This document shows positions 26,185-38,908 of a stretch of DNA of 64,000 nucleotides, piece by piece. Under the pieces are notes generated by a model. That model did no database searches. It was not told the DNA's origin and worked only from the letters and a program-made list of their open reading frames with translations. Position numbers and translations under genes: made by a program. Position 1 is the first letter of the stretch; the number at the start of each line of letters is the position of its first letter. The DNA is from Rhodopseudomonas palustris (GTDB lineage Bacteria; Pseudomonadota; Alphaproteobacteria; Rhizobiales; Xanthobacteraceae): assembly GCA_016215605.1 (NCBI GenBank), contig JACRJB010000053.1, positions 1 to 64,000 on the forward strand, given 5' to 3'.

Positions 26185-26421
26185 GTGGACGAGAAGCGAC
26201 GACAGCCGCGACGCGACGTCGCGGACTCTGCCCATGTCTCCTTCAACGGCACCAGCCTTGGCTGCCTGGTGCGCAACATCTCCGACGACGGTGCGGCGAT
26301 CGACGTCGAGAACGCGGCCTATATTCCGGAGCGGTTCCGGCTGGTGACGGCCGACGCGGTGCACAACTGCCGCCTGGTCTGGATCAAGCAGAACCGGATC
26401 GGCGTGGCGTTCGAAGCCTGA
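26185..26421 (+). CDS. PilZ-domain protein (78 aa)
   Basis: A single small PilZ domain. The c-di-GMP-binding signature is present: an arginine-rich EKRRQPRRDV segment at the N-terminus and NISDDGAAIDV (the D/NxSxxG loop) about 25 residues later, with the barrel closing at RIGVAFEA. A GTG start at 26185, preceded by AAGGGA at 7 nt, gives a compact domain; the longer open frame from 26080 adds a Cys/Trp-rich stretch unlike PilZ proteins. Single-domain PilZ proteins act as adaptors; partner and role are unknown. Confidence 0.85.
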   Translation: MDEKRRQPRRDVADSAHVSFNGTSLGCLVRNISDDGAAIDVENAAYIPERFRLVTADAVHNCRLVWIKQNRIGVAFEA

Positions 26422-26454: not shown

Positions 26455-26494
26455 TGCACTATAATTCTTGCCTTCGCCGCGCCCTGAATTATGC
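26455..26494 (+). promoter_or_regulatory. Candidate BoxR operator/promoter before the importer binding-protein gene
   Basis: TGCACTATAATTC at 26455-26467 contains a perfect -10 hexamer (TATAAT, 26460-26465) and differs by one base from a motif in the boxR-ligase gap (TGCATTATAATTC). A partial inverted copy, GAATTATGC, lies at 26486-26494. It is about 125 nt before the start codon at 26593. Confidence 0.55.
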
Positions 26495-26592
26495 TGCCGT
26501 CAGGTTCGGGACCAAAGCGCCCAGCCGGCGGTGTCGAGGACGCCGCCGGGCGAGAAGCGCGATCCGAACGCCAACCCCAGGGGGAGAACGCC

Positions 26593-27801
26593 ATGTCCGA
26601 GATCCGACGATTGCCGCCGCTATCCCGCCGCGCGCTGCTGACCGGCGCCGCGGGCGCCGCCACGCTCGCCACCTTGCCGCGGTTCGCGACGCCGGCGATC
26701 GCGCAGGCCGCCCCGCTCAAGGTCGGCCTGATGCTGCCCTACACCGGCACCTTCGCGAAACTCGGCCAGTTCATCGACGACGGCTTCCGGCTGCGGATCG
26801 AGCAACTCGGCGGCAAGCTCGGCGGCCGCGAGGTCACCTTCGTCCAGGTCGACGACGAGTCCAAGCCCGAGGCCGCCACCGACAACATGAACAGGCTGGT
26901 CGGCCGCGACAAGGTCGACGTCGTCATCGGCACGGTGCATTCCGGCGTCGCCATGGCGATGGTCAAGGTCGCGCGCGATTCCGGCACGCTGCTGATCATC
27001 CCCAATGCCGGCGCCAACGACGCCACCGGGCCGGCCTGTGCGCCGAACATCTTCCGCACCTCGTTCTCGAACTGGCAGACCACCTTCCCGATGGGCAAAG
27101 TGATGGCCGATGCCGGCATCAAGAACGTCGCCACCATCACCTGGAAGTACACCGCCGGCGCCGAAATGGTCGGCGCCTTCGCGGAGAATTTCACCAAGCA
27201 CGGCGGCAAGATCGTCGAGGATCTGACGCTGCCGTTCCCGCAGGTCGAATTCCAGGCGCTGATCACCCGCATCGCGCAGCTCAAGCCGGACGCTGTGTTC
27301 AGCTTCTTCGCCGGCGGCGGCGCGGTGAAGTTCGTCAAGGACTACGCGGCGGCGGGGCTCAACAAGTCGATTCCGCTGTACGGCGCCGGCTTCCTCACCG
27401 ACGGCACCATCGAGGCGCAGGGCGAAGCGGCGACCGGCATCAAGACCACGCTGCACTACGCCGACAATCTCGACAATCCGGCCAACGTCGCCTTCCTCAA
27501 GGCTTTCAAGGCCAAGACCCAGAAGGACGGCGACATCTACGCGGTGCAGGGCTTCGACGCCGCGGCGCTGCTCGACATCGGGCTGACCGCGGTGAAGGGC
27601 GACGCCGCCGCGCGCGACGCGATGATCAAGGCGATGGCGGCGGCGAAGATCGACAGCCCGCGCGGGCCGCTGTCGTTCAACAAGGCGCACAACCCGGTGC
27701 AGAACATCTACCTCCGCGAAGTCCGCAACGGCCGCAACGAGATGGTCTCGGTCGCGCAGGCCAACGTCGACGACCCCGCCCGCGGTTGCAAGATGACGTG
27801 A
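26593..27801 (+). CDS. ABC transporter substrate-binding protein (LivK/Peripla_BP_6 type), probable aromatic-acid binder
   Basis: A 402-residue binding protein. The leader (1-40) carries SRRALLTGAAGAATLA, a twin-arginine-like signal ending AIAQA, so Tat export is possible. The mature part begins PLKVGLMLPYTGTFAKLG and contains GTVHSGVAMAM and IIPNAGANDATG typical of LivK-type proteins that bind aromatic acids and other carboxylates. GGGGAGAACGCC before the ATG fixes the start. The importer permease and ATPase genes follow after a 381-nt repeat-filled gap. Benzoate or a related aromatic acid is the inferred ligand, from the neighbouring box genes and the shared promoter motif. Confidence 0.9.
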   Translation: MSEIRRLPPLSRRALLTGAAGAATLATLPRFATPAIAQAAPLKVGLMLPYTGTFAKLGQFIDDGFRLRIEQLGGKLGGREVTFVQVDDESKPEAATDNMNRLVGRDKVDVVIGTVHSGVAMAMVKVARDSGTLLIIPNAGANDATGPACAPNIFRTSFSNWQTTFPMGKVMADAGIKNVATITWKYTAGAEMVGAFAENFTKHGGKIVEDLTLPFPQVEFQALITRIAQLKPDAVFSFFAGGGAVKFVKDYAAAGLNKSIPLYGAGFLTDGTIEAQGEAATGIKTTLHYADNLDNPANVAFLKAFKAKTQKDGDIYAVQGFDAAALLDIGLTAVKGDAAARDAMIKAMAAAKIDSPRGPLSFNKAHNPVQNIYLREVRNGRNEMVSVAQANVDDPARGCKMT

Positions 27802-27840
27802 ACGTAGCCGCCCGGGTGGCATCGCGGCTTGCTGATACAC

Positions 27841-28105
27841 CGTCATGGCCGGGCTTGACCCGGCCATCCATCCAAGAATGAATCCTTTCGCGAGAGATGG
27901 ATTGCCGGGTCAAGCCCGGCAATGACGGGCGTATGGAAGAGGCACGCATGCATCAGCACGCTCATAGCTCACCACAAGCACCGTCATTCCGGGGCGCGCG
28001 CCCTTCGCGCGCGAACCCGGAATCCAGAAGTTGTTACGACGTCCGGAGCCGCAGAACAGCTCGGGATTCCGGGTTCGCTCGCTGCGCTCGCGCCCCGGAA
28101 TGACG
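27841..28105. repeat. Two palindromic repeat units of different families in tandem
   Basis: 27841-27927 is an inverted pair of the CGTCATGGCCGGGC/GCCCGGCAATGACG type; 27982-28105 is an inverted pair of the CGTCATTCCGGGGCGCG type. They fill most of the gap 27802-28182 between the binding-protein gene and the permease gene. No gene is visible in the gap. Confidence 0.85.
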
Positions 28106-28182
28106 TGCGTGAGGAGAGCGCTTGTGCAGACGAGCGTGGGGAGAGCACTTGTGCGGAGAGGCGGTAGGGCGCGGATCAAGCC

Positions 28183-29055
28183 ATGGACCTGATCACCTTC
28201 GGCGTTCAACTGCTCAATGCCGTGCAATACGGCATGGTGCTGTTCCTGGTCGCCAGCGGGCTGACGCTGGTGTTCGGGATTCTCGGCGTGATCAACCTGG
28301 CGCACGGCGCCTTCTACATGCTGGGCGCGTACCTGGCGTATTGGATCGCGCTGATGACCGGCAACTATCTGGCGGCGCTGGTCGGCGGCGTGGCGATCGC
28401 CTTCGTGCTCGGGCTTGCGCTGGAGAGCGTGTTCATCCGCTGGCTGTACGGCCGCGATCATCTGGCGCAGGTGCTGTTGTCGTTCGGGCTGATCCTGGTG
28501 ATCGACGAAGTCCGTCAGCTCCTGTTCGGCAAGGACGTGCATTCCGTCGCGCCGCCGGACTGGCTGTCGGGCTCGCTGCAGCTCACCGACAATCTGTCCT
28601 ATCCGGTGTATCGGCTGGCGATCTGCGTGTTCTGCCTCGCGGTGGCGGCGCTGATCTTTCTGGTCATCACCCGCACCAAGATCGGCATGATCGTCCGCGC
28701 CGGCGCCGAGAACCGCGAGATGACGCGCGTGCTCGGCATCGACTACGACAAGGTCAACCGCCTCGTCTTCGCCACCGGCATCGCGCTCGCCGCGCTCGGC
28801 GGCATCGTCACCGCGCCGATCTCCACGGTGTATCCCGGCATGGGCGACGGCATGCTGATCCTCAGCTTCGTGGTCGTGGTGCTCGGCGGCATCGGCTCGG
28901 TCGCCGGCGCCGCGATCGGCGCCCTGCTGATCGGCTTCACCGACACCTTCGGCAAGGTGTTCTTCCCGAGCGTGTCCGGCATGCTGATCTATCTACTGAT
29001 GGCGCTGGTCCTGCTGTGGCGCCCCAACGGCATTCTGGGCCGCAGGGAGGTGTGA
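28183..29055 (+). CDS. livH: Branched-chain-type ABC transporter permease (LivH)
   Basis: A 290-residue inner-membrane permease with about eight helices. GLTLVFGILGVINLAHGAFYMLGAYLAYW is the LivH signature, and GAENREMTRVLGIDYDKVNRLVFATGIALAALGGI is the cytoplasmic coupling loop that meets the ATPase. It forms the channel with the LivM protein encoded next. First gene of the permease/ATPase block livH-livM-livG-livF. Confidence 0.95.
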   Translation: MDLITFGVQLLNAVQYGMVLFLVASGLTLVFGILGVINLAHGAFYMLGAYLAYWIALMTGNYLAALVGGVAIAFVLGLALESVFIRWLYGRDHLAQVLLSFGLILVIDEVRQLLFGKDVHSVAPPDWLSGSLQLTDNLSYPVYRLAICVFCLAVAALIFLVITRTKIGMIVRAGAENREMTRVLGIDYDKVNRLVFATGIALAALGGIVTAPISTVYPGMGDGMLILSFVVVVLGGIGSVAGAAIGALLIGFTDTFGKVFFPSVSGMLIYLLMALVLLWRPNGILGRREV

Positions 29056-29079
29056 GATGAAGCGCCACACGCCCACCTC

Positions 29080-29208
29080 CGTCATGCCCGGGCTTGTCCC
29101 GCCTGCGGGGCCGGAGCCCCTTCGGCGCGGCGAAGGCCCGGGCATCCACGCCTTACTGAGTCGACGGCAGCAAAGACGTGGATGGCCGGGGCAAGCCCGG
29201 CCATGACG
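29080..29208. repeat. Palindromic repeat overlapping the livM start codon
   Basis: An inverted pair from CGTCATGCCCGGGCTTGTCC to GGCCATGACG, with inner ACG/CGTGG boxes. Its final CATGACG (29202-29208) contains the ATG at 29203 used as the livM start, so the element has been partly built into the gene's 5' end. Confidence 0.8.
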
Positions 29209-30226
29209 AAGGAGAGGGCGAGCCCAATTCGAACAACCGTGCTGCCGGCGCTGATCCTCGCCGTCGCACTCGCACTGCCGTTCCTCGTGCCGCAATACTA
29301 CGTCCAGTTCGCCAGCAAGGTGCTGATCCTCGGCGTGCTGGCGATGGCGCTCAATCTGGTGGTGGGGCAGGGCGGGCTGGTGTCGCTGTGCCACGCGGCG
29401 TTCTTCGGCCTCGCCGGCTATGTGCTGGCGCTGCTGTCGCCGAAATACGATCCCGCCTCGCTGCTGCTGACGCTGCCGGCCGCGGTGATCGCCGCCGGCG
29501 CGGTCGCGCTGGTGATCGGCGCCTTGGCGCTGCGCACCCGCGGCGTGTACTTCATCATGGTGACGCTCGCCTTCGGCGAGATGCTGTTCTACCTGTTCCA
29601 CGATGCCGATTTCGCCGGCGGCTCGGACGGCGCCTTCATCAACGCCAAGCCCGAATTGGTGATCGCGGGCGTCCGCCTGCTCGATCTCGATAAGCCGCTG
29701 GTGTTCTATTTCGTGGTGCTGGCGGTCACGATCGGCGCGGTCGGGCTGCTCACCATGCTGGTGCGCTCGCCGTTCGGCCACGCGCTGGCCGCCGCGCGTG
29801 ACAACGAACGCCGCGCCCGCGCGCTCGGCTTTCCGATCTTCCGCATTCGCCTGATCGCCTTCACGCTGTCCGGCGCGCTGGCCGGTCTCGCCGGTTACTT
29901 CGCGGCGATCCAGTTCGGTTTCGTGGCGCCGCAGATGCTCGGCTGGCATCAATCCGCCGTCGCGTTGGTGATGGTGCTGATCGGCGGCCTCAGCACCGTC
30001 ACCGGCCCGCTGATCGGCGCGCTGGTGCTGCTCGGGCTCGAAGAAGTGCTCAAGGCAACCTTCGAGCAATGGAAGCTGATCGAAGGAATCATCGTCATCG
30101 CCATCGTGCTGCTGCTGCCGAACGGCGTGCGGCAGCTCTGGCCGATGGCGGTCGGAGAGGCCGACCCGAAGCCGGCGCGGGACGACAAGGTCGCGCCGTC
30201 GCCAGCGCGCGCGCCGGAGACTGGTC

Positions 30227-30234
<8 letters not shown>
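29203..30234 (+). CDS. livM: Branched-chain-type ABC transporter permease (LivM)
   Basis: A 343-residue permease with about nine helices. LAMALNLVVGQGGLVSLCHAAFFGLAGY is the LivM signature and RDNERRARALGFPIFRIRLIAFTLSGALAGLAG the coupling loop. The C-terminal tail (EADPKPARDDKVAPSPARAP) is hydrophilic. Both in-frame ATGs (29182 and 29203) lie within an intergenic palindrome and lack a good ribosome-binding site; a GTG at 29239 is the only alternative outside it. The end overlaps livG by 8 nt. Confidence 0.93.
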
Positions 30235-30981
<747 letters not shown>

Positions 30982-30985
<4 letters not shown>

Positions 30986-31692
30986 CGGCGCTGCTGCAGG
31001 CCGAGCGGCTCGAAGCGTTCTACGGCGCCAGCCAGATTCTGCACGGCATCGATCTCACGGTCGCGCGCGGCGAGCAGATCGCGCTGATCGGCCGCAACGG
31101 CATGGGCAAGACCACGCTGCTACGCAGCCTGATGGGGCTGGTGCCGGCGTGCCGCGGCCAACGCCTGCTGCACGGCGACGACATCGCCGGCGCGCAGCCC
31201 GACGCGATCGCGCGCCGCGGCGTCGCCCTGGTGCCCGAAGGCCGCGGCGTGTTCGGTGCGCTCACTGTGGTCGAGAATCTGATCATGGCCGCGCGCCCGG
31301 GCCGCGACGGCCGCGCCACCTGGACGTTGCCGCGGATCTTCGAGCTGTTTCCACGGCTCGCCGAGCGCCGCGGCCATGGCGGCCATCAACTTTCCGGCGG
31401 CGAACAGCAGATGCTGACGATCGGCCGCGCGCTGATGACCAATCCGGAGTTGCTGCTGATCGACGAAGCCACCGAAGGCCTCGCGCCGCTGGTCGCGCAG
31501 GAGATCTGGCGCACCCTCGGCGTGATCCGCCGCGAAGGCGTCGCCACCATCGTGGTCGACAAGGATTTCCGTAGCCTCTCGGCGATCGCCGACCGCATGG
31601 TGATGCTGGCGAAGGGCGTCGTGGTGTTCGACGGCCCGCCGGCGAAGCTGGCCGCGCAGCCGGAACTGCTGGAGCGGCATCTGGGGGTCTGA
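30982..31692 (+). CDS. livF: Branched-chain-type ABC transporter ATP-binding protein (LivF)
   Basis: A 236-residue ATPase. Walker A is GRNGMGKTT, the LivF-type segment RRGVALVPEGRGVFGALTVVENL follows, then the signature LSGGEQQMLTIGRAL and Walker B LLLIDEATEGLAP. It pairs with LivG. The ATG overlaps the livG stop by 4 nt. It is the last gene of the importer; boxR converges on it from the other strand beyond a repeat. Confidence 0.95.
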
Positions 31693-31701
31693 CTGTTAGT
31701 T

Positions 31702-31822
31702 CGTCATTCCGGGGCGCTCGCGCAGCGAGCGAACCCGGAATCTCGACGTTCGAGGCACCCGGCGGGTCGTTCGCAGAACTCCTCTAGATTCCGGGTTCGC
31801 GCTGCGCGCGCCCCGGAATGAC
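31702..31822. repeat. Palindromic repeat pair between convergent livF and boxR
   Basis: Outer arms CGTCATTCCGGGGCGCTCG and GCGCGCCCCGGAATGACG, inner arms GAACCCGGAATC and GATTCCGGGTTC. It probably separates the two convergent transcripts; no oligo-U terminator is seen. Confidence 0.85.
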
Positions 31823-31843
31823 GGTGTTGGCTTGTCGCGCTTA

Positions 31844-32779
31844 CTATACGGCTTCATTCTTCAGCCCGAACGCGCAGGCGTCGCGGCACAGCACTGGCGA
31901 CACCATCGCGGTCAGTTTCGCGGCGGCGGCCTCGACGGTCAGGCCCGCGGTGTCGAGCACGCCGGAGGCGCGGGCGTAGAGCGGCTCGCGGCTCTGCAGG
32001 ATGGTGCGCAGCTCCTGCATCGCGGCGCGGTCGTCGGCCATCGGCCGCAAATCGCCCTGGCCGCGCACCCGCGCCATGTGTTCCTCGGGCTCGGCCTTCA
32101 GCCAGATCGTGTAGAACGACGACAGGATCTGGTCGAAGGTGATCGCCTCCGAGACGATGCCGCCGCCGGTCGCCAGCACCATCAGCTCCTTGCGCGCGAG
32201 CAGTTGCGCCAGCGCCGCCTGCTCCATGCGGCGGAAGCCTTCCTGGCCGTACAGCGCGATGATCTCGGCGACCGACAGCCCGTTCTGCTGCTCGATCTCC
32301 TTGTTCAGCTCGACGAACGCCCAGCCGATCTTGTCGGCCAGCATCCGCCCCAGCGTCGATTTGCCGGCGCCGCGCAGGCCGATCAGCGCGATGCCGTGAA
32401 ACGCGTTGGCGCGCCGCGCGCCGGCGCCGAGCCGGCCCATCCCGGACAACACGTCCTTGGCATGCGCGATCTGCACCGGCGTGGCGCGGCGGACCAGATC
32501 GCGGATCACCGGCCAGTCGATCGACGGATCGCCGGTCGGCAGCAGATCCTCCAGCGGCGTCGCCAGCGCGTCGGAGACGCGGCGCAGCAGCATGATCGAG
32601 ACGTTGCCCTTGCCGCTTTCGAGCTGCGCGATGTAGCGCTCGGAAATCCCCGACACCTTGGCCAGCACCTTGCGCGACATGCCGCGCAGTCCGCGCAGCG
32701 TGCGGACGCGCTGGCCGAGCTCCAGCAGGAAGCTGGCGTCGGATTCGGCGGACGGGGTCATGTCTGAAGGCGCGCTCAT
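31844..32779 (-). CDS. boxR: Transcriptional regulator BoxR (HTH plus shikimate-kinase-like domain)
   Basis: A 311-residue regulator. An XRE-type helix-turn-helix lies at about 20-80 (SRKVLAKVSGISERYIAQLESGKGNVS), followed by a linker and a shikimate-kinase-like domain from about 128 with P-loop GLRGAGKST (134-142). This two-part layout is unique to the BoxR/BzdR family, in which the kinase-like domain senses benzoyl-CoA and releases DNA repression. It is divergent from the benzoate-CoA ligase gene, and palindromic TGCA-containing sites lie between them. Start at 32779 gives about 18 residues before the helix-turn-helix; 32761 is an alternative. Confidence 0.94.
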   Translation of the reverse strand: MSAPSDMTPSAESDASFLLELGQRVRTLRGLRGMSRKVLAKVSGISERYIAQLESGKGNVSIMLLRRVSDALATPLEDLLPTGDPSIDWPVIRDLVRRATPVQIAHAKDVLSGMGRLGAGARRANAFHGIALIGLRGAGKSTLGRMLADKIGWAFVELNKEIEQQNGLSVAEIIALYGQEGFRRMEQAALAQLLARKELMVLATGGGIVSEAITFDQILSSFYTIWLKAEPEEHMARVRGQGDLRPMADDRAAMQELRTILQSREPLYARASGVLDTAGLTVEAAAAKLTAMVSPVLCRDACAFGLKNEAV

Positions 32780-32843
32780 GAGAAGTTGAGCGGAATCATA
32801 GTGCCGTGGAGGATTGACAGCAAGCCGGCCCGGTGGCTTCCTA

Positions 32844-32872
32844 TGCATTATAATTCTAATGAACTATAATTC
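32844..32872. promoter_or_regulatory. Candidate BoxR operator between boxR and the benzoate-CoA ligase gene
   Basis: Two tandem motif copies 16 bp apart: TGCATTATAATTC (32844-32856) and TGAACTATAATTC (32860-32872), each holding TATAAT on the plus strand; the first also reads TATAAT on the minus strand. Binding here could control both divergent genes. A TTGACA at 32814-32819 is too distant (29 nt) to be its ideal -35. Confidence 0.6.
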
Positions 32873-32891
32873 CAAAGCGGGGGAGGACGCC

Positions 32892-32927
32892 ATGAGCATT
32901 GGCGCTGCCGAACAATGCACGGCATGA
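32892..32927 (+). other. Possible 11-codon leader ORF overlapping the ligase start
   Basis: ATG at 32892 after a strong GGGAGGACGCC opens MSIGAAEQCTA and stops at TGA 32925-32927, sharing ATGA with the ligase ATG at 32924. It could couple translation by reinitiation, or be the true N-terminus displaced by an indel. Confidence 0.35.
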
Positions 32928-34468
32928 CCGGAGCAGGGTCGTACAATGCGGTGAGCTGGCTGCTCGACCGCAATGTCGCCGAAGGGCGCGGCGACAAGCT
33001 CGCCTTCACCGACACGGTGTCCGAACTGAGCTATCGGGCGCTGCAGGGCCAGACCCGCCGCGCCGCGAACCTGCTGCGCCGCCTCGGCGTCCGCCGCGAG
33101 GAACGGGTGGCGATGATCATGCTCGACACCGTGGACTTTCCCGTGGTGTTTCTCGGCGCGATCCGCGCTGGCGTGGTCCCGGTGCCGCTCAACACGCTGC
33201 TGACCGCCGAGCAATACGCCTATGTGCTGGCGGATTGCCGGGCGCGGGTGCTGTTCGTCTCCGATGCGCTCTATCCGGTGGTGAAGGACATCCTGTCCGG
33301 CCTGCCGGACCTCGCGCATGTCGTCGTCTCCGGCGGCGCCGCGCACGGCCACCTCGGGCTCGCCGACGAACTCGCGCAAGAGAGCGACGTCTGCGAAACC
33401 GCCGCGACCCATGCCGAGGAGCCGGCGTTCTGGCTGTATTCGTCGGGCTCGACCGGCATGCCCAAGGGCGTCCGCCACCTCCACGCCAATCTCGCCGCGA
33501 CTGCGGAGACCTACGCCAGGCAGGTGCTGGGCATCCGCGAGGACGACGTGGTGCTGTCGGCGGCGAAATTGTTCTTCGCCTACGGGCTCGGCAATTCGCT
33601 GACCTTCCCGCTGTCGGTCGGCGCCACCACGGTGCTGAATTCCGAGCGGCCGACGCCGGCGGTCATCTTCAAGCTGATGCAGCGCTACAATCCGACGATC
33701 TTCTGCGGCGTGCCGACGCTGTTCGCCGCGATGCTCAACGATCCGGCGCTGAAGAGCGAGACCGCCGGCAGCCGGCTGCGGATCTGCACCTCGGCCGGCG
33801 AGGCATTGCCGGAATCGGTCGGGCTCGCCTGGCAGGCGCGGTTCAGCGCCGACATTCTCGACGGCGTCGGCTCGACCGAGCTGTTGCACATCTTCCTGTC
33901 GAACGCGCCGGGCGACATCAAATACGGCACCTCGGGCAAGCCGGTCCCCGGCTACAAGGTGCGGCTCGTCAACGACGCCGGCGCGGACGTCGCCGATGGC
34001 GAGGTCGGCGAGCTGCTGGTCGACGCGCCGTCCGCCGGCGAGGGCTACTGGAATCAGCGCAGCAAGAGCCGCGCGACCTTCGAAGGCAGCTGGACCCGCA
34101 CCGGCGACAAGTACACGCGCGACGCCGACGGCCGCTACACCTTCTGCGGCCGCGCCGACGACATGTTCAAGGTGTCGGGCATCTGGGTGTCGCCGTTCGA
34201 GGTCGAGAGCGCGCTGATCACGCATCCGGCCGTGCTCGAAGCCGCGGTGGTGCCAGACGCCGATTTCGACGGCCTCTTGAAGCCGCGCGCTTACGTGGTG
34301 CTGCGCGAAGGCTTCGCCGCCGACGGCCTGTTCGAGCAGCTCAAGGATCACGTCAAGCAGAAGGTCGGGCCGTGGAAATATCCACGCTGGATCGAGGTGG
34401 TCACCAGCCTGCCGAAGACCGCCACCGGCAAGATCCAGCGCTTCAAGCTGCGCGAGGGCGCGCAGTGA
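32924..34468 (+). CDS. bclA: Benzoate-CoA ligase family protein
   Basis: A 514-residue AMP-forming acyl-CoA synthetase. ATP-binding motif YSSGSTGMPKGVRH, aromatic-binding segment AKLFFAYGLGNSLTFPL typical of benzoate-CoA ligases, DGVGSTELLHIFLSN, the A8 hinge RADDMFKVSGIWVSP and the catalytic Lys in PKTATGKIQRFK are all present. It converts benzoate, ATP and CoA to benzoyl-CoA, the substrate of BoxB and the likely inducer for BoxR. The exact start is uncertain: 32915 and 32924 lack ribosome-binding sites, while the good one serves an out-of-frame ATG at 32892. A close substitute such as 4-hydroxy- or fluorobenzoate cannot be excluded. Confidence 0.93.
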   Translation: MTGAGSYNAVSWLLDRNVAEGRGDKLAFTDTVSELSYRALQGQTRRAANLLRRLGVRREERVAMIMLDTVDFPVVFLGAIRAGVVPVPLNTLLTAEQYAYVLADCRARVLFVSDALYPVVKDILSGLPDLAHVVVSGGAAHGHLGLADELAQESDVCETAATHAEEPAFWLYSSGSTGMPKGVRHLHANLAATAETYARQVLGIREDDVVLSAAKLFFAYGLGNSLTFPLSVGATTVLNSERPTPAVIFKLMQRYNPTIFCGVPTLFAAMLNDPALKSETAGSRLRICTSAGEALPESVGLAWQARFSADILDGVGSTELLHIFLSNAPGDIKYGTSGKPVPGYKVRLVNDAGADVADGEVGELLVDAPSAGEGYWNQRSKSRATFEGSWTRTGDKYTRDADGRYTFCGRADDMFKVSGIWVSPFEVESALITHPAVLEAAVVPDADFDGLLKPRAYVVLREGFAADGLFEQLKDHVKQKVGPWKYPRWIEVVTSLPKTATGKIQRFKLREGAQ

Positions 34469-34503
34469 AGTTGATGGGCGGCTTGGCATCGCCTCTCCGC
34501 GAG

Positions 34504-34620
34504 TCGTCCCCGCGCAGGCGGGGACCCATACGCCGCAGCATCGCGATTGAAATCAGGCGGCAGAAGCCTTCCTTCATCTGGGCGGCGAGGGGTTATGGGT
34601 CCCCGCCTGCGCGGGGACGA
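34504..34620. repeat. 27-bp perfect inverted repeat with nested palindromes
   Basis: Arms at 34504-34530 and 34594-34620 are exact reverse complements (core GTCCCCGCGCAGGCGGGGAC), and each core is itself a hairpin. It lies between the ligase and hydrolase genes. This family differs in sequence from the CGTCAT families elsewhere in the window. Confidence 0.85.
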
Positions 34621-34692
34621 ATCGTGGCGGATGTCGCGGTCGAACGTTGATGAAGATGCCTTCCCAGCGGGAAGGAAAACAGGACAGCGCCA

Positions 34693-35514
34693 ATGACTTC
34701 CCTTCCATCCACAGGCCGTCTCGCCATCGGCGATCATCAGCTCGAATATCGCATGATCGGCCCGTCGTCGGCGGAGGCGCCGACGCTGGTGCTGCTGCAT
34801 GAAGGGCTCGGCAGCGTCGGGCTGTGGGGCGAGTTTCCCGACAAGCTCGCGACGGCGACCGGCGCCGGCGTGTTCGTGTATTCGCGTGCCGGCTACGGCC
34901 AGTCGAGCCCGGCAGCGCTGCCGCGCAAGGTGGACTACATGCATCGCGAGGCGCTCGACGTGCTGCCGCGCGTGCTGGGTGCGATCGGCTTCCAGCGTGG
35001 GCTGCTGATCGGCCATTCCGACGGCGCGTCGATCGCGGCGATCTATGCCGGCGGCGTGCCGGATCATCGCGTTCGCGGGATCACGCTGATGGCGCCGCAT
35101 TTTGTCGTCGAGGACATCTCGGTTCAGTCGATCGCGGCGATCAAGCAGGCCTACGAGACCACCGAACTCCGCGCCAAGTTGGCGAAGTGGCACAGGGACG
35201 TCGACAACGCGTTCCGCGGCTGGAACGACGCCTGGCTCGATCCCGCCTTTCACGCCTGGGATATCTCCGATCACCTCGCCTACATTCGCGTGCCGGTGCA
35301 GATCGTGCAGGGCGCCGACGATCAGTACGGCACCTTGAAGCAGATCGAGATCGCCGAAGCCGAGTGCTATTGCCCGGTCGAAACCCTGATCATCCCCGGC
35401 GCCGGCCACTCGCCGCATCGCGAGGCGGCGGAGACGACGCTCGGCGCCGTCGCCGATTTCGCCGATCGGATTCTGCGGGGGCACGGCGAAGCCGCACACG
35501 GACAGGCAGCCTGA
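34693..35514 (+). CDS. Alpha/beta hydrolase of the box cluster
   Basis: A 273-residue alpha/beta hydrolase. The oxyanion region is LLHEGLGSVGLWGEF, nucleophile Ser109 in GHSDGAS, acid in GADDQYG, and His in GAGHSPHRE; the cap contains WNDAWLDPAFHAWDI. Similar hydrolases accompany box genes in Bradyrhizobium-type genomes. A thioesterase or ester/lactone hydrolase acting on a pathway intermediate is likely, but no substrate is established from sequence. It lies 224 nt past the ligase gene and just before the boxC promoter. Confidence 0.88.
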   Translation: MTSLPSTGRLAIGDHQLEYRMIGPSSAEAPTLVLLHEGLGSVGLWGEFPDKLATATGAGVFVYSRAGYGQSSPAALPRKVDYMHREALDVLPRVLGAIGFQRGLLIGHSDGASIAAIYAGGVPDHRVRGITLMAPHFVVEDISVQSIAAIKQAYETTELRAKLAKWHRDVDNAFRGWNDAWLDPAFHAWDISDHLAYIRVPVQIVQGADDQYGTLKQIEIAEAECYCPVETLIIPGAGHSPHREAAETTLGAVADFADRILRGHGEAAHGQAA

Positions 35515-35522
35515 CCGCAAAC

Positions 35523-35587
35523 TGCAACAAAATGCATGTTTCCGGCGTTTCGAGCTGGACGCAGGCGAAATTGTGCATTATAATGCA
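35523..35587 (+). promoter_or_regulatory. Candidate BoxR operator/promoter before boxC
   Basis: The perfect palindrome TGCATTATAATGCA (35574-35587) holds TATAAT at 35579-35584 with TGGACG 17 bp upstream as a possible -35. Four TGCA half-sites form two TGCA-N6-TGCA pairs (35523/35533 and 35574/35584). TGCA repeats are, as I recall, the half-sites described for BzdR/BoxR operators. The start codon follows at 35615. Confidence 0.68.
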
Positions 35588-35614: not shown

Positions 35615-37303
35615 ATGGCCGCGGAAGATCGCGTTCTCGCCAACGGAGCGAGCCGGATCGACTTTCAAACCGATCCGTCGCGCTACCGGCACTGGAAGTT
35701 GGCCGTCGACGGCGAGGTGGCGACCCTCACCATGGACGTCGACGAGAATGGCGGGCTGTTCGAGGGCTATCAGCTCAAGCTGAATTCCTACGATCTCGGC
35801 GTCGATATCGAGCTCGCCGACGCGATGCAGCGGCTGCGTTTCGAACATCCGGGCGTGAAGGTGATCCTGCTGCGCTCCGGCAAGAACCGCGTGTTCTGCG
35901 CCGGCGCCAATATCCGGATGCTGGCCGGCGCCACGCACGCCCACAAGGTCAATTTCTGCAAGTTCACCAACGAGACCCGCAACGGCTTCGAGGACTCGTC
36001 CGAGTTCTCCGGCCAGCGCAGCATCGCGGTGATCAACGGCACTGCGGCCGGCGGCGGCTACGAGTTGGCGCTCGCCGCCGATCAGATCGTGATGGCGGAT
36101 GACGGCGCCGCCGCGGTGGCGCTGCCGGAAGTGCCGCTGCTCGCCGTGCTACCCGGCACCGGCGGGCTGACCCGTGTCGTCGACAAGCGCAAGGTGCGGC
36201 GCGACCGCGCCGACTTCTTCTGCACGATCGAGGAAGGCATCAAGGGCAAGCGCGCCGTGCAATGGCGGCTGGTCGACGAGATCGCGCCGAACAGCAAGCT
36301 CGAAGCGCGGATCGCCGAGCGCGTGAAGGCTCTGGCCGCGTCGTCGCCACGCAACGCCGGCGGCAAGGGCATCGACCTCACGCCGCTGACGCGCAGCTTC
36401 GACGAGTCCGGCGTGCGCTATCAGTTCGTCAGTGTCGATCTCGACCGCGACGCCCGCATCGCCACCATCTCGATCTCCGGTCCGGACTCGGCGCCGCCGG
36501 CGGACGTCGACGGTCTGATCGCCCAGGGCGCATCGTACTGGCCGCTGCAGGTGGCGCGCGAACTTGACGATGCGATTCTGCATCTGCGCATCAACGAACT
36601 CGGCATCGCGATGCTGGTGTTCAAGTCGCACGGCGACAGCGCGCAGGTGCTGGCGCACGACGCGTTCCTCGACGCCAACAAGGCGCACTGGCTGGTCAAC
36701 GAGATCCGGCACTATTGGAAGCGCGTGCTGAAGCGCGTCGACGTGACCTCGCGCACGCTGGTGACGCTGGTCGAACCGGGCTCGTGCTTCGCCGGCACGT
36801 TGGCCGAACTGGTGTTCGCCGCCGACCGATCCTACATGCTGATCGGCACCCGCGAGGGTGATAATCGCCCGGCGCCGATGCTGACGCTGAGTGCGATGAA
36901 TTTCGGCCCGTATCCGATGAGCCACGGCCTGACGCGGCTGCAGTCGCGCTTCCAGGCCGGCCCCGACGAGCTGAAGCAGGCGGAAGCGAAGATCGGCGAG
37001 CCGCTCGACGCGGAAGCCGCCGACGAGCTCGGCCTCGTCACCTTCGCGCTCGACGATATCGACTGGGACGACGAGGTCCGCGTGTTCCTCGAAGAGCGCG
37101 CCTCGTTCTCGCCCGACAGCCTCACCGGCATGGAAGCCAATCTGCGCTTCGTCGGCCCCGAGACGATGGAGTCGAAGATCTTCTCCCGTCTCACCGCCTG
37201 GCAGAACTGGATCTTCCAGCGCCCCAACGCCGTCGGCGAAGACGGCGCCCTGCGCCGCTACGGCACCGGCCAGAAGGCGCAATACGACATGACGCGGGTG
37301 TGA
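35615..37303 (+). CDS. boxC: 2,3-epoxybenzoyl-CoA dihydrolase (ring-cleaving) BoxC
   Basis: A 562-residue crotonase-superfamily enzyme with two enoyl-CoA-hydratase-like halves, the normal BoxC size. The first half includes VILLRSGKNRVFCAGANIRMLAG and INGTAAGGGYELALAADQI, the oxyanion-hole segment; the second starts near 270 and includes TLVTLVEPGSCFAGTLAELVFAADRSYM. It opens the 2,3-epoxybenzoyl-CoA ring by adding two waters, giving 3,4-dehydroadipyl-CoA semialdehyde and formate. The ATG at 35615 has GGGAGGAG at ideal spacing. It begins a boxC-boxB transcription unit controlled from the palindrome just upstream. Confidence 0.96.
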   Translation: MAAEDRVLANGASRIDFQTDPSRYRHWKLAVDGEVATLTMDVDENGGLFEGYQLKLNSYDLGVDIELADAMQRLRFEHPGVKVILLRSGKNRVFCAGANIRMLAGATHAHKVNFCKFTNETRNGFEDSSEFSGQRSIAVINGTAAGGGYELALAADQIVMADDGAAAVALPEVPLLAVLPGTGGLTRVVDKRKVRRDRADFFCTIEEGIKGKRAVQWRLVDEIAPNSKLEARIAERVKALAASSPRNAGGKGIDLTPLTRSFDESGVRYQFVSVDLDRDARIATISISGPDSAPPADVDGLIAQGASYWPLQVARELDDAILHLRINELGIAMLVFKSHGDSAQVLAHDAFLDANKAHWLVNEIRHYWKRVLKRVDVTSRTLVTLVEPGSCFAGTLAELVFAADRSYMLIGTREGDNRPAPMLTLSAMNFGPYPMSHGLTRLQSRFQAGPDELKQAEAKIGEPLDAEAADELGLVTFALDDIDWDDEVRVFLEERASFSPDSLTGMEANLRFVGPETMESKIFSRLTAWQNWIFQRPNAVGEDGALRRYGTGQKAQYDMTRV

Positions 37304-37456: not shown

Positions 37457-38908
37457 ATGAACATGAACATCATGAACGTCGACTACTCGACCAAGATTCC
37501 CAACAATGTCGACCTCGCCTCCGACCGCCAAGTGCTGAAGGCGCTGGAGGGCTGGCATCCGGGCTACATCGACTGGTGGAACGACATGGGCCCCGAGGGC
37601 TTCCAGCAGTCGCTGGTTTACTTGCGCACGGCCTATTCGGTCGATCCGCGCGGCTGGGCCAAGTTCGACTACGTCAAGATGCCGGACTATCGCTGGGGCG
37701 TGCTGCTGGCGCCGCAGGAGGAGAACCGCAAGATCCCGTTCGGCGAGCATTACGGCGAGCCGGCCTGGCAGGAAGTCCCCGGCGAGTATCGCGCGATGCT
37801 GCGCCGGCTGATCGTCATTCAGGGCGACACCGAGCCGGCTTCGGTCGAGCAGCAGCGCCATCTCGGCAAGACCGCGCCGTCGCTCTACGACATGCGTAAC
37901 CTGTTCCAGGTCAATGTCGAGGAAGGCCGCCATCTGTGGGCGATGGTGTATCTGCTGCAGAAGTATTTCGGCCGCGACGGCCGCGAGGAGGCTGACGATC
38001 TCTTGCGCCGCCGCTCCGGCGACGCGGATTCGCCGCGCATGCTCGGCGCCTTCAACGAGGCGACGCCGGACTGGCTGTCGTTCTTCATGTTCACCTACTT
38101 CACCGATCGCGACGGCAAGATGCAGCTGCACAGCCTCGCGCAGTCGGGCTTCGATCCGTTGTCGCGCACCTGCCGCTTCATGCTGACCGAGGAAGCGCAC
38201 CACATGTTCGTCGGCGAGACCGGCATCACCCGGGTGATCCAGCGCACCTGCGACGCGATGCGCGCGGCCGGCATCACCGATCCGACCGACATCGCCAAGG
38301 TCCGGGCGCTGGGCGTCATCGATCTGCCGACAATCCAGAAGAAGCTAAACCTGCACTACACGCTGTCGCTCGATCTGTTCGGTTCGGAAGTCTCGACCAA
38401 CGCCGCCAACGCCTTCAACTTCGGCATCAAGGGTCGCTATCACGAGACTCAGATCGACGACGATCACCAGCTCAAGACCGCGACCTATCCGGTGCTCAAA
38501 TTCGTCGACGGCGAGATCAAGCGGGTCGACGAACCGGCGCTGACCGCGCTCAACATGCGGCTGCGGGACGACTATTCGCAGGATTGCGTCAAGGGCCTGC
38601 TGCGCTGGAACAAGGTGATCACCACCGCCGGTTACGACTATCAGCTGGCGCTGCCGCACGTCGCTTTCCACCGCGCGATCGGCGAGTTCAAGGACGTCGA
38701 CGCCACGCCGGAAGGCCTGCTGATCGACGCCGCGACCTGGGCGAAGCGCAAGGACGATTGGCTGCCGTCGACCGACGACGGCGATTTCATCGCCTCGCTG
38801 ATGCAGCCGGTCAGCGAGCCGGGCGAATACGCTCCCTGGATCTCGCCGCCCAAGGTCGGTATCGACAACAAGCCGGGCGATTTCGAGTACGTGAAGATCG
38901 AGACCTGA
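37457..38908 (+). CDS. boxB: Benzoyl-CoA 2,3-epoxidase oxygenase subunit BoxB
   Basis: A 483-residue di-iron monooxygenase. The ferritin-like iron ligands of BoxB are all present at an offset of 6 from the Azoarcus numbering I recall: Glu126 (GDTEPAS), Glu156 and His159 (VEEGRH), Asp217, Glu246 and His249 (TEEAHH). It epoxidises benzoyl-CoA at C2-C3 with oxygen, using electrons from the NADPH reductase BoxA. No boxA gene follows: the next plus-strand gene is more than 2 kb away and unrelated. Length and motifs are standard. Confidence 0.96.
   Translation: MNMNIMNVDYSTKIPNNVDLASDRQVLKALEGWHPGYIDWWNDMGPEGFQQSLVYLRTAYSVDPRGWAKFDYVKMPDYRWGVLLAPQEENRKIPFGEHYGEPAWQEVPGEYRAMLRRLIVIQGDTEPASVEQQRHLGKTAPSLYDMRNLFQVNVEEGRHLWAMVYLLQKYFGRDGREEADDLLRRRSGDADSPRMLGAFNEATPDWLSFFMFTYFTDRDGKMQLHSLAQSGFDPLSRTCRFMLTEEAHHMFVGETGITRVIQRTCDAMRAAGITDPTDIAKVRALGVIDLPTIQKKLNLHYTLSLDLFGSEVSTNAANAFNFGIKGRYHETQIDDDHQLKTATYPVLKFVDGEIKRVDEPALTALNMRLRDDYSQDCVKGLLRWNKVITTAGYDYQLALPHVAFHRAIGEFKDVDATPEGLLIDAATWAKRKDDWLPSTDDGDFIASLMQPVSEPGEYAPWISPPKVGIDNKPGDFEYVKIET

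What the first reader, a model, noticed from the sequence alone, without database searches (positions are those of the whole stretch)
26455..35587. A shared TGCAYTATAATKC promoter motif links an ABC importer to the box benzoate genes
The motif is seen four times: TGCACTATAATTC at 26455 (before the importer binding protein), TGCATTATAATTC at 32844 and TGAACTATAATTC at 32860 (boxR-ligase gap), and TGCATTATAATGC at 35574 (before boxC). Each pair differs at one to three positions, each contains a perfect TATAAT, and reading the window I noticed it nowhere else. At boxC it becomes the perfect palindrome TGCATTATAATGCA with TGCA-N6-TGCA spacing. BoxR/BzdR regulators are known to use TGCA half-sites (from memory). 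The inference is one BoxR regulon in which the repressor covers the -10 element of importer, ligase and ring-cleavage genes, making the importer a benzoate-type uptake system.
Basis: partly seen in the sequence, partly recalled or inferred. Interest (0 to 1): 0.75.

Follow-up and report, generated by a model that had tools for sequence, protein, structure and literature searches.

The report
Paired BoxR operators at benzoate genes
In this Rhodopseudomonas genome the repressor of benzoate breakdown appears to grip paired DNA sites at the breakdown genes, at its own gene and at a neighbouring importer, tying uptake of the compound to its use; the switch was already predicted in other bacteria, and this extends it to a new group in more detail.

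Summary
The motif is real. In the 5.79-Mb genome TGCAYTATAATKC (up to 1 mismatch) occurs at the four reported places and one other. It is one form of the known BoxR/BzdR operator, TGCA-N6-TGCA, published for Betaproteobacteria together with a BoxR-regulated putative benzoate ABC transporter (PMC6449761). Six of them form pairs 30, 52 and 51 bp apart. Pairs are conserved: boxC 66 of 66 loci, boxR-ligase 73 of 74, importer 46 of 51 orthologues, also where importer or boxC lies far from boxR. The importer's binding protein is about 55% identical to HbaE, which binds benzoate, and a 74% relative sits in a benzoate-dioxygenase operon. Corrected detail: TATAAT at 26455 is probably not the importer -10; TATGCT inside the missed site at 26485 fits better. 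No binding or expression was measured. Verdict: a new, Alphaproteobacterial member of a known regulon.

The parts
   Evidence: held-out matrix score 20.0; conserved with its partner
26468..26473 (+). candidate importer -35, TTGCCT, 16 bp before TATGCT
   Evidence: sequence; TTG follows O1 in 30 of 30 direct pairs, spacer to the second site's TATG position 16-19; inference
   Evidence: matrix score 16.7
26593..27801 (+). importer substrate-binding protein
   Evidence: PF13458; closest solved structure 4evq/4evr
28183..31692 (+). importer permeases and ATPases (28183-29055, 29182-30234, 30227-30985, 30982-31692)
   Evidence: best matches are urea/branched-chain ABC models, below their equivalog cut-offs
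31844..32779 (-). boxR: N-terminal HTH, C-terminal shikimate-kinase-like domain (start chosen by reading)
   Evidence: NF006015 442 bits, cut-off 204; PF01381 and PF01202
   Evidence: 1 mismatch; score 16.0; 73 of 74 loci
32818..32823 (-). candidate boxR -35, TTGCTG, 17 bp from TATGAT
   Evidence: TTGCTG at this distance in 72 of 73 loci
32844..32857 (+). ligase operator TGCATTATAATTCT, 52 bp from the boxR operator
   Evidence: score 22.3
32860..32873 (+). extra ligase site TGAACTATAATTCC, 16 bp after the first; complete in 5 of the 7 Rhodopseudomonas sequences aligned
   Evidence: score 21.3
32915..34468 (+). benzoate-CoA ligase
   Evidence: TIGR02262, 895 bits, cut-off 375
34693..35514 (+). 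alpha/beta hydrolase between ligase and boxC
   Evidence: PF00561; between ligase and boxC in the named box loci
   Evidence: 66 of 66 loci; score 19.5
35556..35561 (+). candidate boxC -35, TGGACG, 17 bp before the -10
   Evidence: TRGACN at this distance in 64 of 66 loci
35574..35587 (+). boxC operator O1, TGCATTATAATGCA, with -10-like TATAAT (35579-35584)
   Evidence: score 25.0
35615..37303 (+). boxC, 2,3-epoxybenzoyl-CoA dihydrolase
   Evidence: TIGR03222, 981 bits, cut-off 712
37457..38908 (+). boxB, benzoyl-CoA 2,3-epoxidase subunit
   Evidence: TIGR03225, 926 bits, cut-off 499

Best explanation
The sites are operators of the adjacent BoxR repressor. Each promoter region (boxR/ligase, boxC, importer) carries two TGMA-N6-TKCA sites on about the same face of the DNA, roughly 3 turns apart at the importer and 5 turns apart at boxR-ligase and boxC. 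BoxR dimers would bind both sites cooperatively and block RNA polymerase; benzoyl-CoA, the product of the ligase, would release them, so that uptake, activation and ring opening are induced together. Shown here by sequence: sites, pairing, spacing, conservation and association with BoxR. Inferred from published Azoarcus BzdR/BoxR work: dimer binding, cooperativity, benzoyl-CoA as inducer. Inferred from homology and gene context: the importer carries benzoate.
For: A held-out matrix ranks the seven sites first in the window. In 80 named BoxR loci (1.52 Mb), 166 of 175 pairs of matrix hits (score 10 or more, 15-120 bp apart) lie 30-32, 41-43, 50-54 or 61-62 bp apart, 9 elsewhere (many of the 50-52 pairs are sites the matrix was trained on, chosen by sequence and not by spacing). 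Exact motif in 91 of 177 BoxR-positive and 10 of 119 BoxR-negative family genomes, Fisher p 1.3e-15; reversed pattern in 6 of 296. In G125, G170, G199 boxC is at another locus than boxR and keeps TGAATTATAATGCA. In G141 the importer is on another contig than boxR and keeps both sites. Published BoxR motif ATGCACTATAGTGCAT, sites almost always multiple, mainly 3-5 turns apart, regulons with a putative benzoate ABC transporter (PMC6449761, passages); BzdR OR2/OR3 are TGCA-N6-TGCA, A-rich in OR3 (PMC6678401, passages). Binding protein nearest to 4evq, which matches the HbaE-position protein of G199 almost letter for letter; HbaE binds benzoate (PMC3223731, passages). A 74% relative follows benzoate dioxygenase genes in R. 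rhizogenes K84.
Against: No binding or expression data for this organism. 86 of 177 BoxR-positive genomes lack the exact motif; variants such as TGAATTATAATTCT (55 of 73 named loci) account for Bradyrhizobium, but not every such genome was checked. G003 has BoxR and a 72% importer relative without a pair, only one weak site (13.0); G293 shows one site. BoxR-negative G214 (81% complete) has the pair. Seven of 30 motif loci read remain unassigned. Site C2:103999 is not near box genes. The ligase promoter shows no clear conserved -35. At a score of 10 the matrix alone finds a pair in 24 of 50 direct importer promoters.
Confidence: 0.88

Rival explanations
1. The motif is only a strong sigma-70 -10 element (TATAAT) that recurs in AT-rich promoters.
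Against: 54 of 66 boxC sites read TGCAYTATTGTGCA, keeping TGCA and losing TATAAT; the second boxC site has no TATAAT and lies upstream of the -35. Sites come in phased pairs.
Confidence: 0.05
2. The sites are operators of some other regulator shared by these genes, not of BoxR.
For: No binding data; 10 of 119 BoxR-negative genomes hold an exact match, though two of these carry box genes at the match (G115, G210).
Against: A site pair spans boxR's own promoter in 73 of 74 loci, and operator-like sites stay before boxR where it stands alone; the half-site is that of published BzdR/BoxR operators.
Confidence: 0.05
3. BoxR controls the importer, but the importer mainly carries another aromatic acid (for example 4-hydroxybenzoate) rather than benzoate.
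For: HbaE, the nearest characterised relative, also binds 4-hydroxybenzoate and salicylate. In Afipia-like genomes the operon begins with an extra AMP-binding gene, hinting at a further acid.
Against: HbaE shows a high-affinity shift with benzoate; a 74% relative is in a benzoate-dioxygenase operon.
Confidence: 0.2

Closest known systems
BoxR/BzdR regulon of Betaproteobacteria (PMC6449761)
   Same: BoxR-type repressor, divergent box cluster, TGCA-N6-TGCA sites in multiples several turns apart, putative benzoate ABC transporter in the regulon
   Different: Alphaproteobacteria; half-sites relaxed to TGAA/TTCA in several sites; matrix core TTATAA rather than CTATAG; here ligase, hydrolase, boxC and boxB all run opposite to boxR, whereas the paper describes boxR usually on the boxCBA side; pair spacing differs by promoter type
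Azoarcus PN promoter with BzdR OR1-OR3 (PMC6678401)
   Same: several TGCA-type operators, an upstream A-rich one and one near the core promoter
   Different: anaerobic bzd genes there, aerobic box genes here; two sites seen per promoter rather than three operator regions
HbaEFGHI aromatic acid importer of R. palustris (PMC3223731)
   Same: same importer type, about 55% identity in the binding protein, near benzoate genes
   Different: sits by hba/bad genes; the window importer carries BoxR-type operators

Membership tests
BoxR/BzdR repressors | N-terminal XRE-type HTH plus C-terminal shikimate-kinase-like domain | tested here: met
   PF01381/PF13560 and PF01202; NF006015 442 bits over cut-off 204
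BoxR/BzdR repressors | gene next to benzoyl-CoA pathway genes | tested here: met
BoxR/BzdR repressors | benzoyl-CoA is the inducer | not testable with these tools
   reported for BzdR (PMC6678401, passages)
BoxR regulon | TGCA-N6-TGCA type operators, usually multiple, several turns apart | tested here: met
   both half-sites are strict TGCA only at the two boxC sites, the other five are variants
BoxR regulon | BoxR binds and represses these promoters | not testable with these tools
   needs wet work
Benzoate ABC importer | close relative of a characterised benzoate-binding protein | tested here: met
   4evq/HbaE, about 55% identity
Benzoate ABC importer | binds and transports benzoate | not testable with these tools
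   needs ligand and uptake assays

The most novel reading that the evidence does not exclude
BoxR in this bacterial family uses a phase code: paired sites 3 turns apart at importers, 4 at ligase-importer operons and 5 at boxR-ligase and boxC, which could set a different induction threshold for each step; and BoxR kept alone with its own paired sites in Rhodopseudomonas that lack boxC may read benzoyl-CoA made by another, anaerobic, route.
Probability: 0.15. Interest if true: 0.55.

Novelty: new member of a known kind. Interest (0 to 1): 0.35.

Why it matters
It carries the BoxR regulon, with the importer inside it, into a group of soil and phototrophic Alphaproteobacteria, gives a precise operator map for testing, and supplies a regulatory reason to annotate a generic branched-chain-type ABC importer as an aromatic-acid (benzoate) importer. 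The strict spacing classes offer a simple test of cooperative repression.

Tried and rejected
Rejected: TATAAT as the importer -10 (see report). Set aside as BoxR targets: C2:103999 (a single site upstream of what I read by eye as a DUF1127 small gene and trmFO, no family search run; a similar single site stands at the same place in other Rhodopseudomonas); C30:15526 (single site, nothing box-related seen by eye in the frames beside it); TGAATTATCATGCA in three box-less genomes (inside a predicted reading frame in L254 and L255, in none listed in L253). No further regulon member was recognised with the patterns used, but most of their matches were not inspected and weak sites are not excluded. 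A sigma-54 reading of the ligase promoter was considered by eye and dropped for wrong spacing. K84, whose importer is a 74% relative, shows no operator pair by the matrix; the Polaromonas plasmid relative was not scanned.

Counting history: the importer count started at 30 of 50; the 20 without a pair were then re-examined, which added 14 and 1 by matrix, and G159, first left out, was added. The regular expressions were written after seeing the sequences. The matrix is the held-out test for the window; at score 10 it alone finds a pair in 24 of 50 direct importer promoters.
Full report
Observation. The four reported sites are present as written. In the window's genome (5,793,944 bases, 78 contigs) TGCAYTATAATKC with up to one mismatch occurs at those four places and at C2:103999; the reversed-pattern control gives none. 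The genus, judged by the titles of the nearest BoxR loci, is Rhodopseudomonas (R. pseudopalustris, R. infernalis and others).

Genes. The importer is a five-gene ABC system of the urea/branched-chain type at 26593-31692, below the cut-offs of the named subfamilies.

The relaxed pattern TGMAYTATRNTKCH matches exactly at seven distinct places in the genome, five in this locus (26455, 26485, 32844, 32860, 35574), the others at C2:103999 and C30:15526. At one mismatch it finds 39 matches against 26 for the reversed control, so relaxed matches alone mean little. Of 36 places with TGCA-N6-TGCA in the genome (reversed control 23), two lie in the boxC promoter, 35523 and 35574. To test without circularity I built a palindromic matrix from 30 distinct sites at boxC, ligase and boxR promoters of loci L074-L147, with no importer site and without the Rhodopseudomonas box loci L068-L073. 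(L074, L075, L076, L078, L082 and L115 also carry Rhodopseudomonas titles, but one search lists no ligase or BoxC for them, so they should have given no site.) Scanned over the 64-kb window it puts seven sites on top, scores 25.0, 22.3, 21.3, 20.0, 19.5, 16.7, 16.0; the eighth scores 11.9. Markov shuffles of the window give on average 1.02 hits of 12 or more (7 observed) and 0.04 phased pairs (3 observed).

Pairs and spacing. The boxC promoter has both sites in 66 of 66 loci, 50-52 bp apart in 62. The boxR and ligase operators are both present in 73 of 74 loci, 52 bp apart in 72; the miss, L126, differs by one base in the expression used. These loci were chosen by BoxR similarity, not by site, but are mostly Bradyrhizobium, so related sequences count many times. 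Taking every pair of matrix hits of 10 or more lying 15-120 bp apart in the 80 named loci (1,518,893 bases), 166 of 175 fall at 30-32 (10), 41-43 (9), 50-54 (144) or 61-62 bp (3), near 3, 4, 5 and 6 turns; the other nine are 16 (4), 68 (4) and 72 (1). Many of the 50-52 pairs are training sites of the matrix; they were chosen by sequence, not spacing. The 16- and 68-bp cases fit the extra ligase site of Rhodopseudomonas (the window shows both values).

Importer. 76 of 296 family genomes hold a binding-protein match at E 1e-100 or better. I took those of at least 66% identity, 52 genomes, and looked at 51; G243 has no upstream DNA. Directly before the binding protein, 30 of the first 50 have a pair 30-33 bp apart, and G159, added later, has one at 32. 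In 17 of the others (14 of genus g26, Afipia-like by titles, and three of g27) an AMP-binding gene of about 620 codons, or its end, lies upstream of the binding protein (PF00501 checked in two); before that gene 15 have a pair 40-42 bp apart, G293 shows a single site and G248 runs off its contig. G003, with BoxR, has one weak site (13.0) at the importer, though its boxC promoter has a pair 41 bp apart; G004 and G014, without BoxR, have none. Total 46 of 51. Of the 47 that are BoxR-positive and testable, 45 have the pair; the misses are G003 and G293. BoxR-negative G214, 81% complete, has it. G141 carries the importer mid-contig on C16 and BoxR mid-contig on C8, and keeps both sites; in G095 they are about 22 kb apart.

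Trans control of boxC. In G125, G170 and G199 the boxC cluster lies at another locus than boxR, and each has TGAATTATAATGCA starting 47 bp before the boxC start. In the 20 Rhodopseudomonas loci (search limited to cores YTATAR), sites scoring 12 or more of 14 lie at ligase/boxR, boxC, importer or lone boxR promoters, except in L152, which was fetched for its off-cluster site; L167 showed none.

Link with BoxR. Of 296 family genomes 177 have BoxR over cut-off. The exact motif is in 91 of 177 and in 10 of 119 without (Fisher p 1.3e-15; related genomes inflate this); the reversed pattern is in 6 of 296. Of the 30 motif loci that one search returned, 21 hold box-type genes by tblastn. Of the other nine, L043 and L044 proved to be the ligase-importer promoter, and seven stay unassigned. 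Two BoxR-negative genomes (G115, G210) carry box genes at the motif.

Promoter reading. boxC: TRGACN, 17 bp before the TATNNT of the operator, in 64 of 66. boxR: TTGCTG in 72 of 73, 17 bp before the TATGWT-like element of its operator. Importer: all 30 direct pairs have TTG just after the first site and 29 have TATG in the second (G005 has TAAG); the spacer is 16 bp in the window and 16-19 overall. G141 reads TTGACT there while its first site reads TATAGT. I therefore place the importer -10 at 26490-26495. The ligase promoter keeps TATAAT but I saw no conserved -35. These are sequence readings, not mapped starts.

Substrate. The binding protein's best solved relative is 4evq/4evr, E 5e-127, next 1.5e-48. 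That chain matches the protein at the HbaE position of G199 almost letter for letter, which is 55% identical to the window protein. HbaE (RPA0668) is reported to bind benzoate with a 17-degree shift, and also 4-hydroxybenzoate, salicylate and benzaldehyde (PMC3223731, passages). That 4evq is RPA0668 is my inference. In R. rhizogenes K84 a 74% relative directly follows benzoate dioxygenase and catechol genes.

Prior knowledge. Suvorova and Gelfand predicted the BoxR/BzdR motif ATGCACTATAGTGCAT, multiple sites mainly 3-5 turns apart, and putative benzoate ABC transporters in the regulon, in a study of 32 Betaproteobacteria; they note that the transporter's role is not shown by experiment (PMC6449761, passages; the words Alphaproteobacteria and Bradyrhizobium do not occur). 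Azoarcus PN has three operator regions, TGCA-N6-TGCA in two, with cooperative binding and a DNA loop (PMC6678401, passages). PMC10803450 notes BoxR and ABC transporters near ligases (passages). My searches of the open library (listings only) showed no title or abstract start describing this regulon in Alphaproteobacteria; subscription papers are not covered.

Left open. In Rhodopseudomonas BoxC is over cut-off in 11 of 16 genomes; G028, G089, G181, G190 and G223 lack it, yet keep BoxR. All five show two operator-like sites before boxR, 52 bp apart in L149 and 51 in L157. An exact search for TGMAYTATNNTKCA in these five found that boxR site and two other kinds that look unrelated. What the lone BoxR does is unknown.

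Noticed in passing
window 32892-32927: A strong Shine-Dalgarno precedes an 11-codon reading frame (MSIGAAEQCTA) whose stop overlaps an ATG of the ligase frame; L068-L073 and L077 show similar 10-11 codon frames, the six Bradyrhizobium loci L092-L097 printed beside them do not. Possible translational coupling.
   Followed up: partly
L149, L153, L156, L157 (also L158, L160, L164, L166): BoxR stands away from box genes, beside a gene that reads by eye as a short-chain dehydrogenase in the four annotated, with operator-like sites upstream; five of 16 Rhodopseudomonas genomes lack boxC but keep BoxR.
   Followed up: partly
L218-L223, L228, L230-L237: In Afipia-like and some g27 genomes the importer operon begins with an AMP-binding enzyme of about 620 aa and has operator pairs 40-42 bp apart, suggesting a second CoA ligase in the regulon.
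   Followed up: partly
G000 C2:103999 (L067), L152, L252, L256: A single site-like sequence lies upstream of what reads by eye as a DUF1127 small gene and trmFO in several Rhodopseudomonas genomes; conserved but unpaired.
   Followed up: partly
window about 27845-28110, 29080-29210, 31700-31825, 34500-34640: Palindromic repeat-like DNA (GTCATTCCGGGGCG type and similar) fills gaps inside the importer operon and box cluster; read by eye.
   Followed up: no
window 26191-26418: A small PilZ-domain gene ends just before the importer promoter.
   Followed up: no
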